A stretch of 64,000 bases of DNA from Acinetobacter tianfuensis (GTDB lineage Bacteria > Pseudomonadota > Gammaproteobacteria > Pseudomonadales > Moraxellaceae). Of this stretch, positions 13,097 to 26,988 are shown in pieces. Made by a program: the position numbers and the translations under genes. Location: positions 1-64,000 of the forward strand of contig NZ_RAXV01000008.1 in assembly GCF_003611465.1 (NCBI RefSeq). Reading direction: 5' to 3'. Positions within the stretch are counted from its first letter, which is position 1, and every line of letters starts with the position of its first letter. The notes below the pieces were generated by a model, which saw only the letters and a list, made by a program, of their open reading frames with translations, was not told the origin of the DNA and ran no database searches.

Positions 13097-13187
13097 GGAA
13101 GCGTGGCAGAGCGGTTTAATGCACCGGTCTTGAAAACCGACGAGGGCTTATACCCCTCCGTGAGTTCGAATCTCACCGCTTCCGCCA
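13097..13187 (+). tRNA. tRNA-Ser (anticodon UGA)
   Basis: This 91-base class II tRNA has the acceptor pair GGAAGCG/CGCTTCC, D arm, and anticodon stem CGGTC/AACCG-type with loop TTGAAAA giving anticodon TGA. It has a long variable arm (GAGGGCTTATACCCCTC) and the T arm GTGAG TTCGAAT CTCAC. Discriminator G and CCA are encoded. The long variable arm confirms serine. It decodes UCA and, by wobble, related serine codons. It stands alone between a strong promoter and a terminator. Confidence 0.98.
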
Positions 13188-22576: not shown

Positions 22577-23302
22577 TCAGACGAAGTCATTGATTAGTCG
22601 ATAGTTCAAGATGGAAAGAGCAACAACAGGCGCAGTTTCGGTGCGTAAAACACGGTCACCGATACACCAGTTGGCAAATCCAGCTTCATTTGCAGCAATA
22701 ATTTCAGTTTCACTTAAGCCGCCTTCAGGGCCAATGAGCAGCGCAATATCACGTGCAGCATTGGCTAAAACATCTGTTTGGTCCTTGTTAGGGGCGAGCA
22801 CGAGTTTAGTTGCTGGCAGTTCAGATGCAAGCCATTTGTCTAAACTGACCGGTGCAAGGATTTTTGGCACGATGTTTAGGCCGCATTGTTCGCAGGCAGC
22901 AATCGCGATGCCTTGCCAGTGATCCAGTTTCTTTTGATCACGGTCGTACTTTAAACGCATTTCACAGCGTTCAGAGGTCAGCAGCTGAATTTCTGCAACA
23001 CCGAGTTCCACCGCTTTTTGAATGGCATAATCCATACGGTCGCCTTTGCTCATGACTTGACCCAAGAGAGCCGTAAAATGAGGTGTGCGGTTGCTTGGAT
23101 TGAATTGCAAAACTTGGACGGCAGCCGACTTTTTAGCGACTTCAACCAATTCAACATGGTATTCGCCACCTTGCCCATTGAACAAAGTGGCAGTTTCTCC
23201 CACTTGAGCACGTAAAACTTTTACCCAGTGATGAAACACTGTTTCCGTTAATTCAACAGTCGTATCAACAGTTAAATCAGCTTCAATATAAAAACGTGGC
23301 AT
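22577..23302 (-). CDS. rsmE: 16S rRNA m3U1498 methyltransferase RsmE
   Basis: RsmE methylates N3 of U1498 in 16S rRNA. The 241-residue protein has an N-terminal PUA-like domain (MPRFYIEADL, HHWVKVLRAQVGE) and a C-terminal SPOUT knot with the SAM-binding segments ALLIGPEGGLSETEI and LGDRVLRTETA-like sequence (here IGDRVLRTETAPVVAL). VMSKGDRMDYAIQKAVELGV is a further family hallmark. It lies 32 bases after metF on the same strand with no terminator between, so the two are probably cotranscribed, though their functions connect only through SAM chemistry. Confidence 0.94.
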   Translation of the reverse strand: MPRFYIEADLTVDTTVELTETVFHHWVKVLRAQVGETATLFNGQGGEYHVELVEVAKKSAAVQVLQFNPSNRTPHFTALLGQVMSKGDRMDYAIQKAVELGVAEIQLLTSERCEMRLKYDRDQKKLDHWQGIAIAACEQCGLNIVPKILAPVSLDKWLASELPATKLVLAPNKDQTDVLANAARDIALLIGPEGGLSETEIIAANEAGFANWCIGDRVLRTETAPVVALSILNYRLINDFV

Positions 23303-24205: not shown

Positions 24206-24378
24206 TATTTCCCTCATCCCAGCCTTCTCCCTAAGGGAGAAGGGACTTCCATTATGAAAGTAATAGTTATTTGGAGTTAACATCAAATTTGCTTTCACAA
24301 TGAAGAGTTCCCTCTCTTGCGCTGAGCTTCAAAGCAGTGCTTGAAGCACGCTCAGGAGAGGGTTAGGGAGAGGTATTT
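24206..24378. mobile_element. MITE-like inverted-repeat element between ahcY and metF
   Basis: The block 24211-24373 starts with CCCTCATCCCAGCCTTCTCC and ends with the imperfect complement of that sequence (about 15 of 19 positions). It is flanked on both sides by TATTT (24206-24210 and 24374-24378), a possible target duplication. Internally it carries CTTCTCCCT/AGGGAGAAG with a one-base loop and a second hairpin built on TGAGCTTCAA/TTGAAGC…GCTCA. There is no coding capacity. CCCTC…GAGGG-type intergenic repeats are known to recur in bacterial genomes; recurrence in this genome cannot be tested here. Confidence 0.6.
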
Positions 24379-24385
24379 ATAAAAC

Positions 24386-25768
24386 TTAGTATTTATAAGC
24401 CTCAGCTTTGAACGGGCCTTCAACCTGAACACCGAGGTAATCCGCTTGTTCTTGAGTCAAAGTTGTCAATACGCCGCCGAAACCAGCAACCATTGCAGCA
24501 GCAACTTCTTCGTCTAATTTCTTAGGAATCAGTTCTACGCGGATTGCAGCTTGTTTTTGATCTTCAGGAAGATCAGCAAATTTTTCAGCGAACAAGTGCA
24601 TTTGGCCCAATACTTGGTTAGCAAAAGAACCATCCATAATACGCGATGGGTGACCCGTTGCGTTGCCAAGGTTCACTAAACGGCCTTCTGAAAGAAGGAT
24701 CAAGTAGTTATTCTCGTCTTCTGAACGGTAAACTTGGTGTACTTGCGGCTTCACTTCAACCCACTTGTAACCGCGCAGGTAGTTGGTATCGATTTCAGTA
24801 TCGAAATGACCGATGTTACAAACAACAGCGCCCGCTTTTAATGAATCAAGCATTGCAGCGTCACATACGTGGTAGTTACCAGTCGTCGTTACGATCAAGT
24901 CAGTGTTTTGAAGAAGGTCAAGGTTGATATCTTCTTTCTTGCCAGTTTGCACGCCGTTTTTGTACGGAGCAACAACTTCGTAGCCGTCCATGCATGCTTG
25001 CATTGCGCAGATTGGGTCAACTTCAGTGACACGTACAATCATGCCTTCTTGACGAAGTGATTGAGCAGAACCTTTACCTACGTCGCCATAACCGATTACA
25101 AGCGCACGGCGGCCAGATAAAAGCATATCTGTACCGCGTTTGATTGCATCGTTTAGTGAGTGGCGGCAGCCGTATTTGTTGTCGTTTTTAGACTTGGTTA
25201 CAGAGTCATTTACGTTGATTGCAGGAACTTTTAAAGTGCCGTCGCGGTGCATTTCGTAAAGACGCTGCACGCCAGTAGTGGTTTCTTCAGTAATACCGTG
25301 AATTTTAGCGATCACTTCAGGATATTTTTCGTGAACAAGCGCAGTTAAGTCACCGCCATCGTCCAGAATCATGTTGGCATCCCAAGGTGTGCCGTTTACG
25401 TTAATTTGCTGTTCTAAGCACCAAACGTATTCTTCTTCAGTTTCGCCTTTCCAAGCAAATACAGGAATACCCGCAGCAGCAATTGCTGCAGCAGCGTGAT
25501 CTTGCGTAGAGAAAATGTTGCAAGAAGTCCAGCGAACTTCTGCGCCTAATTCAACTAGAGTTTCAATTAAAACTGCAGTTTGAATGGTCATGTGGATACA
25601 GCCAAGAATTTTCGCGCCAGCAAGCGGTTTAGCTGCTGCATAGCGTTTGCGAAGACCCATTAGGGCTGGCATTTCTGCTTCTGCAAGCTTGATTTCTTTA
25701 CGGCCGTAATCAGCAAGTGAAATGTCGGCAACTTTATAATCTGTAAATGAAGCATTAACCGCGTTCAT
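24386..25768 (-). CDS. ahcY: S-adenosylhomocysteine hydrolase AhcY
   Basis: AhcY splits S-adenosylhomocysteine into adenosine and homocysteine, removing the product inhibitor of methyltransferases. The 460-residue protein has the substrate domain ([37 protein letters not shown]), the NAD-binding glycine motif [16 protein letters not shown], and the C-terminal [13 protein letters not shown]-type and EAYKY ends of the family. ATG 25768 is preceded by GGAG. A GTG one codon upstream is less likely. A SAH riboswitch in the 5' leader (25805-25905) explains regulation: high SAH should turn the gene on. metF lies downstream. Confidence 0.96.
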
Positions 25769-25804
25769 CACGATCTCCTATATTTAAAAAAATTGATCAT
25801 TATG

Positions 25805-25905
25805 TTCGCGGATGCCGTTGTTGATTGGAGCGAGTGTCCAACCGAATCGTCGAGCCTAGCGATCTTATATTTAGTGCCTATAAGAAAGTCGCAGCATCCC
25901 TCGAC
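25805..25905 (-). promoter_or_regulatory. S-adenosylhomocysteine (SAH) riboswitch
   Basis: On the minus strand, in the ahcY leader, the conserved SAH-aptamer blocks appear in order: GAGGGATGCTGC, AGGCTCG, then CAACGGCATCCGCG. P1 forms perfectly between GTCGAG (25905-25900) and CTCGAC (25854-25849). The pseudoknot forms between GGATGC (25899-25894) and GCATCC (25815-25810), six perfect pairs. TTGGA/TCCAA supplies an inner stem. The position upstream of ahcY is the classical context, where ligand binding increases expression. Confidence 0.9.
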
Positions 25906-26040
25906 TAGCGGAGTATTGTACTTGGAAATAGAGTGAGTTCCAATCCGAAAATGCTTAATATCTGACTTATAGGTTTTTTGATCTGTAAAATTACGCTGTG
26001 AATATTTAAATTTAATCCATCGGTTGGGAGTATAAGAAGA

Positions 26041-26988
26041 ATGACTAAACCCTTAATGGCTTTATTGATGTTTTGGCCAGTTCTTGCCATATCCAATGAC
26101 TCAACGGGTTATGTGGCAACAGGCGGTGTGCAATACCTGAAAAATAAAGACATTCAAATGTTCAGTGAAGACCTGTTTATTAGTAAAAAAATCATTAAGG
26201 TCGATTACCAGTTTAAAAATTTAAGCAATCAAGATGTGACTGAAACGGTCTTGTTTCCGTTGCCAAAAGTTGAAAATTTTTTTGAATCTGATTTTGCCAA
26301 TACAGAAAAACTGCTCAAAAGTTTTAAAGTTCAGGTGAATGGAAAAACGATTCAGCCTGAAATGCACGTGCGTACTTTTATTCAAAAAGATGAAAAAACA
26401 TCCCCGATTGATATGACGGAGAGTTTTAAACAATGCGGGTTTACGGAAAAAGACATGCTGAATCCGTGGAGCAGGCAAAATGATGAATATGAAACTTTCG
26501 AAGCAAAACTCAGAAACTGTAAAAATGCAGCGCTGCAAAAAGTATTGCCCAAAGATCCCAATGAAGTCATTTCATGGTCGTCTCAAGTGATTTACAGCTG
26601 GAAGCAAACCTTTAAAGCCAATGCTGTGACTCGTGTACAGCATCAATATGCACCGCTGGTGGGCGGCTCTGTGGCTTTATATCCTGATGAATATAATCAA
26701 AGTTATTGTATGGATCAAAACTTTAAGCTAGGACTCAGAAAGGCCAAATCACAGCATGCGCCATTTCAAACTTTGGGCTATATCTTAAAAACAGGTGCCA
26801 ATTGGGCTAAACCCATTCAAGATTTTAAATTGACCATAGAGCGTGATGCCAACGAACTGGTTTCTTTTTGCTGGGCAGGTAAAGTGACGAAAATCAGCGC
26901 AACGCAATTTCAAATGGGTGAAAGGAATTTTGTACCTAAACAGGATTTGGACATTATTTTTGTGCATGTGAAATCAGGTCATGATTAA
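26041..26988 (+). CDS. DUF4424-family secreted protein
   Basis: This 315-residue protein begins with a hydrophobic signal segment (about 1-17, LLMFWPVLAIS) and then the DUF4424 hallmark NDSTGYVATGGVQYLKN. Mostly beta-type sequence follows, with four cysteines spaced as in exported proteins and the phrase FVHVKSG near the end. Members of DUF4424 are periplasmic or secreted proteins of unknown function. GGGAG lies 12 bases before the ATG. The upstream 270 bases are shared with the divergent ahcY leader; the next gene starts 64 bases downstream and may be cotranscribed. Confidence 0.75.
   Translation: MTKPLMALLMFWPVLAISNDSTGYVATGGVQYLKNKDIQMFSEDLFISKKIIKVDYQFKNLSNQDVTETVLFPLPKVENFFESDFANTEKLLKSFKVQVNGKTIQPEMHVRTFIQKDEKTSPIDMTESFKQCGFTEKDMLNPWSRQNDEYETFEAKLRNCKNAALQKVLPKDPNEVISWSSQVIYSWKQTFKANAVTRVQHQYAPLVGGSVALYPDEYNQSYCMDQNFKLGLRKAKSQHAPFQTLGYILKTGANWAKPIQDFKLTIERDANELVSFCWAGKVTKISATQFQMGERNFVPKQDLDIIFVHVKSGHD

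What the first reader, a model, noticed from the sequence alone, without database searches (positions are those of the whole stretch)
25805..25905. SAH riboswitch controlling ahcY
All conserved blocks of the SAH aptamer are present on the minus strand, with a perfect six-bp P1 and a perfect six-bp pseudoknot. It provides product-inhibition relief: accumulated SAH switches on the hydrolase. It also makes metF and rsmE downstream candidates for the same control if transcripts run through.
Basis: partly seen in the sequence, partly recalled or inferred. Interest (0 to 1): 0.6.

Follow-up and report, generated by a model that had tools for sequence, protein, structure and literature searches.

The report
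SAH riboswitch pairing with gene's start
This is a real but atypical RNA sensor for S-adenosylhomocysteine in front of the Acinetobacter enzyme gene that destroys that compound; one strand of the sensor can apparently also pair with the first codons of the gene, which suggests how the sensor could switch the gene off when the compound is scarce.

Summary
On the minus strand at 25905-25810 lies an SAH-riboswitch aptamer with a 6-bp P1 and a 6-bp pseudoknot (PK), 41 nt before the ahcY ATG. Rfam RF01057 finds it only below its cut-off (25.2 bits against 37), as in the 33 of 41 genus genomes that match at E<=1. A lineage model gives 94 bits (the window is one of its 22 training rows). Helices covary: 18 of 26 pairs have changes on both sides, 0 of 500 shuffles. 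An aptamer precedes all 115 Acinetobacter ahcY copies examined (113 by script, 2 by eye). The SAH riboswitch on Moraxellaceae ahcY-metF-rsmE is already in print (PMC4239095), so the element itself is not new.

What seems new is the switch. The PK 3' strand plus tail (GGCAU-CCGCG) is complementary to ahcY codons 2-6; the alternative hairpin encloses Shine-Dalgarno and start codon. The CCGCG/CGCGG helix is in the predicted fold of 82 of 87 distinct tails of Moraxellaceae with this PK type, with about three compensatory double changes. Most likely an ON switch of translation. Ligand and switching were not tested.

The parts
25938..25943 (-). -35 element TTGGAA
   Evidence: a like promoter lies 8-12 nt before P1 in 110 of 112 genus upstreams against 10 of 112 for a piece 100-160 nt upstream (related sequences, up to 2 mismatches per hexamer)
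25915..25920 (-). -10 element TACAAT; predicted transcription start falls within a few nt of P1
   Evidence: start site inferred from spacing
25900..25905 (-). P1 5' strand GUCGAG
25894..25899 (-). pseudoknot 5' strand GGAUGC
25862..25887 (-). P2 hairpin (5' strand 25887-25879, 3' strand 25869-25862)
   Evidence: 7 of 8 pairs with changes on both sides
25849..25854 (-). P1 3' strand CUCGAC, after the conserved core GCUAGG
25823..25843 (-). P3 hairpin GGUUGG/CCAAUC
   Evidence: 4 of 6 pairs with changes on both sides
25810..25815 (-). pseudoknot 3' strand GCAUCC (ON partner 25899-25894; OFF partner ahcY codons)
25807..25816 (-). OFF-hairpin 5' strand GGCAU-CCGCG (PK 3' strand plus tail)
25795..25804 (-). 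inner OFF pairs: CAU (25804-25802) with the start codon, AUGAUC (25800-25795) with GAUCGU (25775-25770)
   Evidence: inner pairs are much less conserved than CCGCG/CGCGG
25775..25779 (-). Shine-Dalgarno AGGAG, 6 nt before the ATG
   Evidence: read directly
25751..25763 (-). OFF-hairpin 3' strand inside ahcY: CGCGG (25763-25759) and AUGCU (25755-25751)
24386..25768 (-). ahcY, adenosylhomocysteinase, from ATG 25768 (the ORF list begins 3 nt upstream at a GTG)
   Evidence: TIGR00936, 524.7 bits
23335..24171 (-). metF, methylenetetrahydrofolate reductase, possible read-through target (ATG 24171; the ORF list begins at TTG 24177)
22577..23302 (-). rsmE, 16S rRNA (uracil-1498) methyltransferase, possible read-through target

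Best explanation
A riboswitch of the SAH class (RF01057) that turns ahcY translation on when SAH is high. Transcription starts close to P1, so the aptamer is made first. If SAH binds, P1 and the PK lock and the PK 3' strand is held. If not, once the ahcY start has been transcribed the PK 3' strand and tail (GGCAUCCGCG) pair with codons 2-6 (CGCGGuuaAUGCU), forming a long hairpin that encloses the Shine-Dalgarno and start codon and blocks the ribosome. In the window the two pairings use the same six PK bases and exclude each other. Shown: aptamer helices, covariation, complementarity to the coding start. Inferred: SAH as ligand, direction of the switch, translational rather than transcriptional control, and a decision made during transcription (the OFF hairpin is predicted to be very stable, -18.9 kcal/mol).
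For: Aptamer. PK over 235 loci, 20 distinct: 95% of cells paired, 23 double changes against 8.6 in shuffles, 0 of 2000. Platform: the CDS helix is in the minimum-energy fold of 82 of 87 distinct Moraxellaceae tails of the NCAYCY PK type; 95.6% of cells paired against 18-45% when slid, and 12 double-change cells against 1.8 in shuffles, 0 of 500. Double changes: leader C to U with codon-3 GCG to GCA in A. qingfengensis and in Moraxella/Psychrobacter; leader G to A with CDS C to U in genome G171. In A. qingfengensis the leader change turns a PK G-C into G-U, so the PK does not explain it while CDS pairing does. Codon 3 is GCG in 11 of 12 Acinetobacter ahcY genes against 9.7% of their other Ala codons; of 33 conserved Ala positions only this one is GCG in more than 4 genes. 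Across 37 tail types each tail pairs better with its own start region than with others' (-10.9 against -8.8, 0 of 20000 swaps).
Against: RNAalifold on the 87-row tail alignment predicts no consensus structure. In one search two of the five measures do not stand out: pairs with a double change 2 against 1.0 (53 of 500 shuffles reach it), further pair types 4 against 5.0 (500 of 500). Only two independent pairs exist on the tree for the C/U change, so the sign test cannot reach significance. Tails find helices of similar strength further inside the gene at +65 to +110 (p 0.16), though not at +19 to +64 (p 0.002). Five of 87 tails lack the helix: L226, L230, L231, L239 and L017. 29 Moraxellaceae loci with other PK forms were left out of the 87-row set. 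In the ten Moraxellaceae full-leader folds the helix is near certain in six, middling in L012 (0.74) and L237 (0.49), weak in L202 (0.20) and L240 (0.28). Tail types and genus sequences are related, not independent. Pseudoknot energies were not computed, so the ON/OFF balance is untested.
Confidence: 0.7

Rival explanations
1. SAH riboswitch with an ordinary expression platform: the ligand acts by another route (for example Shine-Dalgarno pairing only, or mRNA stability) and the complementarity to codons 2-6 is incidental.
For: In Pseudomonas the tail pairs the Shine-Dalgarno region itself (CCAUUCG/CGAAUGG, L075 and L248). RNAalifold finds no consensus in the tails. The Psychrobacter fold also covers the Shine-Dalgarno (L019). 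Chance helices of similar strength occur at +65 to +110.
Against: Compensatory changes at two helix positions, GCG fixation at codon 3, and the swap test.
Confidence: 0.2
2. The aptamer-like fold senses another ligand (SAM or a related nucleoside), because the Acinetobacter form differs enough from the Rfam consensus to fall below the cut-off.
For: Score below cut-off in all 33 genus matches; core C to U (GCUAGG) in the window.
Against: Read from the alignment, the departures lie mainly in an AU-rich P2, a long insert with P3 and AU-containing PK; the core blocks are kept. The lineage model finds nothing in the 5 sampled genus genomes without AhcY.
Confidence: 0.05
3. Transcription attenuator: the leader controls termination rather than translation.
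For: A run of seven U (25792-25786) follows the PK tail; two reduced genomes (G172, G101) have a different tail with alternative repeats, in L203 followed by a U run.
Against: No terminator-like site in 25700-26100 (simple consensus scan); the OFF hairpin encloses the start codon and ends inside the gene.
Confidence: 0.05

Closest known systems
SAH riboswitch, Rfam RF01057
   Same: P1, P2, PK, core blocks, position and orientation before ahcY
   Different: AU-richer P2 and PK, an inserted P3 hairpin, below the Rfam cut-off; tail pairs with codons 2-6
SAH riboswitch regulon of Moraxellaceae in Leyn et al. 2014 (PMC4239095, passages read)
   Same: Same family, same targets ahcY, metF and COG1385 (rsmE); found with Rfam models in 2 of 4 genomes
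   Different: The passages I read describe no expression platform for it; its supplements were not available to me
Pseudomonas SAH riboswitch leaders (L075, L081 named; L248 and others of the GCGCCCATTC tail type)
   Same: PK 3' strand plus tail looks like the anti-initiation strand
   Different: They pair with the Shine-Dalgarno region (CCAUUCG/CGAAUGG), not with codons 2-6
SAM/SAH riboswitch (RF01727) and SAM-II type direct-occlusion riboswitches (PMC10907184, PMC2864571, passages read)
   Same: Pseudoknot-based translational control
   Different: Those block the ribosome site in the ligand-bound pseudoknot; here the bound pseudoknot would free it

Membership tests
SAH riboswitch (RF01057) | Covariance-model match at or over the curated cut-off | tested here: not met
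   25.2 bits against 37; 0 of 33 genus matches over the cut-off. The cut-off is a curation threshold, not a structural trait; 27 of the 149 Moraxellaceae genomes, all in other genera, pass it. I therefore call it a divergent member by structure, not by Rfam's threshold
SAH riboswitch (RF01057) | P1 and pseudoknot with compensatory changes | tested here: met
SAH riboswitch (RF01057) | Conserved core blocks GAGGnnnnnUGCrAC, GYYAGGCUC, AACGGC | tested here: met
   for the window; block names are my wording of the Rfam consensus printed
SAH riboswitch (RF01057) | Sits before SAH-recycling genes, same strand | tested here: met
SAH riboswitch (RF01057) | Binds SAH and discriminates against SAM | not testable with these tools
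   needs in-line probing
SAH riboswitch (RF01057) | Activates expression on binding | not testable with these tools
   only the mutually exclusive pairings are shown

The most novel reading that the evidence does not exclude
SAH riboswitches use their pseudoknot 3' strand with its tail as a general anti-initiation strand whose partner drifts between lineages: Shine-Dalgarno in Pseudomonas, start codon in others, codons 2-6 in Moraxellaceae. The first codons of ahcY are then part of the riboswitch, under three-way covariation (PK 5' strand, PK 3' strand, coding sequence), and the switch is decided during transcription.
Probability: 0.5. Interest if true: 0.55.

Novelty: new variant of a known kind. 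Interest (0 to 1): 0.4.

Why it matters
Acinetobacter, a large genus with clinical members, carries this riboswitch on ahcY in all 115 copies examined, yet in the 41 genomes sampled the standard Rfam cut-off hides it, so annotation that uses that cut-off will miss it. If the switch works as proposed, it ties synonymous codon choice at the start of a housekeeping enzyme gene to riboswitch folding, and gives a directly testable case of coding sequence evolving as an expression platform.

Tried and rejected
Single-sequence folding of the aptamer region gave no useful signal, as expected for a pseudoknot. RNAalifold on the tails gave no structure; I relied on explicit pair counts, which have their own controls, and report the failure. 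My first PK count used a register off by one (PK part) and was redone. One search matched nothing through a wrong pattern and was redone. Considered and rejected: a terminator in the window leader (none found); GAUC/GAUC pairing alone as the sequester stem (too short, its outer pairs poorly conserved). The metF motif pattern missed the window-like genes, so I make no count of gene order from it.

Rows and filters. Script 38 returned a best place for 286 of 300 sequences, many of them no aptamers (named loci without a riboswitch); script 39 kept 238 by score, spacing and core (48 dropped). L214, L292, L045, L225, L286 and L054 were excluded, and L221 too, for a wrong PK, a wrong start or no aptamer; itself still holds some of them. 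In one search L017 is counted in a wrong register. L016's PK was set by hand. For the tail set, 29 of 179 Moraxellaceae loci with other PK forms were left out, and the other 150 gave 87 distinct tails. The 22 rows of the aptamer model were picked by me, for spread and moderate length, from 32 candidates that I had also picked.

Literature. Wang 2008, Weinberg 2007 and Edwards 2010, which I recall as the primary SAH-riboswitch papers, are not held, so I cannot say whether their platform figures include coding-sequence pairing; from memory they describe Shine-Dalgarno or terminator platforms. The listings of searches (titles and starts of abstracts) show no paper on this pairing; only PMC4239095, PMC10907184, PMC2864571, PMC9495176 and PMC11162775 were opened, as passages.

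Full report
What is there. On the minus strand, 41 nt before the ATG of ahcY (25768), lies a 96-nt element (25905-25810) with P1 GUCGAG/CUCGAC, P2, P3 and a pseudoknot GGAUGC/GCAUCC. The downstream genes are ahcY, metF and rsmE. The genome is an Acinetobacter: the nearest named AhcY is that of Acinetobacter sp. ANC 5054, 98% identical.

Is it an SAH riboswitch? The Rfam scan at the curated cut-off reports nothing here. With the threshold lifted, RF01057 is the best match of the region: 25.2 bits, cut-off 37, E 0.0075; genome-wide E 0.02, the only other match at E<=10 has 14.9 bits. Over 149 Moraxellaceae genomes RF01057 matches 83 at E<=1 and 27 over the cut-off; in the window's genus 33 of 41 match at E<=1, none over the cut-off. 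At that loose threshold 4 of 14 control genomes match too, so these weak scores alone prove little. A model (R1) built from 22 Moraxellaceae aptamers, the window among them, matches 86 of 149 at E<=0.01, one place per genome, with the window at 94.2 bits; R1 misses some aptamers that Rfam finds over its cut-off (for example G005, G027). In the order and class samples 29 of 293 and 113 of 274 genomes match RF01057 at E<=0.001, all over the cut-off (weaker matches were not asked for). The genus looks like an outlying branch of the family.

Covariation. In the 22-row aptamer alignment, 26 pairs in four helices: 91.6% of cells paired (shuffles 80.8), 18 pairs with changes on both sides (9.3), 59 such cells (20.3), each reached by 0 of 500 shuffles; slid versions pair 29-45%. 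P1 is 98.5% and PK 100% paired. In the wider set P1 has 37 double changes against 12.9 (36 distinct) and PK 23 against 8.6 (20 distinct), 0 of 2000 shuffles each. Within Acinetobacter alone P1 and PK are almost invariant (3 and 5 distinct forms) and the shuffle test has no power there.

Distribution. AhcY is found in 114 of 119 genus genomes. Of the 115 ahcY copies examined (window included; one genome has two), 113 show the aptamer by script and 2 (L203, L204) by eye (a stricter first pattern found 109). In the sample the genus has 41 genomes; 35 match R1. Of the 6 misses, G048, G087, G090, G129 and G141 have no AhcY match; G101 has AhcY, a weak Rfam match and the by-eye aptamer L204.

Promoter. 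TTGGAA-17-TACAAT ends 9 nt before P1. A like promoter lies 8-12 nt before P1 in 110 of 112 upstreams; the same search 100-160 nt upstream finds 10 of 112. These sequences are related. The transcript thus probably begins close to the aptamer, so an alternative partner should lie downstream (inference).

The switch. Folding the leader with the first codons and the tail alone gives one long hairpin: GGCAU-CCGCG-aa-CAU-a-AUGAUC, a 19-nt loop with most of the Shine-Dalgarno, GAUCGU-g-AUG-aa-CGCGG-uua-AUGCU. Its 5' strand is the PK 3' strand with one base before and three after it; its 3' strand runs through codons 2-6. Energy -18.9 kcal/mol, z -2.7 (3 of 200 shuffles as stable). For the eight tails z runs from -1.2 to -4.2. 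Among 87 distinct Moraxellaceae tails with a PK strand of the NCAYCY form (29 loci with other forms left out), 82 hold at least 4 of 5 CCGCG/CGCGG pairs in the minimum-energy fold, and 52 have at least 2 of 3 start-codon bases paired. On their alignment the five pairs are formed in 95.6% of cells, against 18-45% when slid; 12 double-change cells against 1.8 (0 of 500), but only 2 pairs with such changes against 1.0 (53 of 500 reach it) and no excess of pair types. The whole hairpin is 82.8% paired against 79.6 in shuffles, with 31 double-change cells against 6.7 (0 of 500). Inner pairs are much less conserved. RNAalifold found no consensus on this alignment. In the ten Moraxellaceae full-leader folds the helix is near certain in six, 0.74 in L012, 0.49 in L237, 0.28 in L240 and 0.20 in L202.

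Why the coding side seems to be under selection. Leader/CDS pairs read CCGCG/CGCGG in most Acinetobacter and in Alkanindiges, CUGCG/CGCAG in A. qingfengensis, Moraxella L016 and Psychrobacter, and CCACG/CGUGG in G171. On a quick AhcY tree these are about three separate double changes; the formal pair test has only two pairs and cannot be significant. In A. qingfengensis the leader change weakens the PK (G-C to G-U) but matches its codon change. In two reduced genomes (L203, L204) both sides are lost together. Codon 3 is GCG in 11 of 12 genes, against 9.7% of other Ala codons, and the exception is A. qingfengensis. Over 37 tail types, one row each, own pairing beats swapped pairing, 0 of 20000; against the same gene at +19 to +64 p is 0.002, at +65 to +110 p is 0.16. 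Types are not fully independent.

Lineage differences. The best helix falls on the Shine-Dalgarno or leader in 6 of 37 types, on the spacer in 1, on the start codon in 7, on codon 2 and beyond in 10, and is weak in 13.

Interpretation. High SAH stabilises the PK and keeps its 3' strand away from the codons: ahcY on. Low SAH: the strand moves to the codons: ahcY off. As the OFF hairpin is predicted to be very stable, the choice is probably made during transcription (inference; pseudoknot energies not computed). metF begins about 210 nt after ahcY, with no terminator-like site found between.

Prior knowledge. PMC4239095 (passages read) reports the SAH riboswitch in 2 of 4 Moraxellaceae genomes, with ahcY, metF and COG1385 as targets. 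The papers that I recall as primary for the class are not held. The element is thus a known class in a known place; the below-cut-off spread over the genus and the coding-sequence platform are what I would add.

Noticed in passing
L203 and L204 (genomes G172, G101): Reduced Acinetobacter genomes keep the aptamer but have another tail with four segments in the order a, b, a', b' (CTATATCATC, ATCAAGA, GATGATATAG, TCTTGAT), so two mutually exclusive or knotted hairpins; in L203 the last is followed by a U run. A different, perhaps transcriptional, platform (by eye).
   Followed up: partly
Genomes G048, G087, G090, G129, G141, G169, G227: Genus members without an AhcY match. The five tested (G087, G090, G129, G169, G227) have matches to the MTA/SAH nucleosidase model over its cut-off, perhaps the replacement route; G133, which has AhcY, also has one.
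   Followed up: partly
window 24222-24244: Palindromic CCCTTCTCCCTTAGGGAGAAGG in the ahcY-metF gap; five places in the genome carry its 20-base core within two mismatches, so perhaps an interspersed repeat.
   Followed up: partly
L283 and L030: Very long tail/start complementarities: GCTCACTCAT/GTGAGTGAGT and GCTCATTTTTAT/ATAAAAATGAGT, covering the start codon.
   Followed up: no
L017 (Moraxella caprae) 2930-2997: The ATG seems lost; CTGCGT is still complementary to ACGCAG, now between Shine-Dalgarno and a downstream GTG start (by eye).
   Followed up: no
window 13097-13184: A tRNA gene on the plus strand with a long variable arm, the only Rfam match over cut-off in the window.
   Followed up: no
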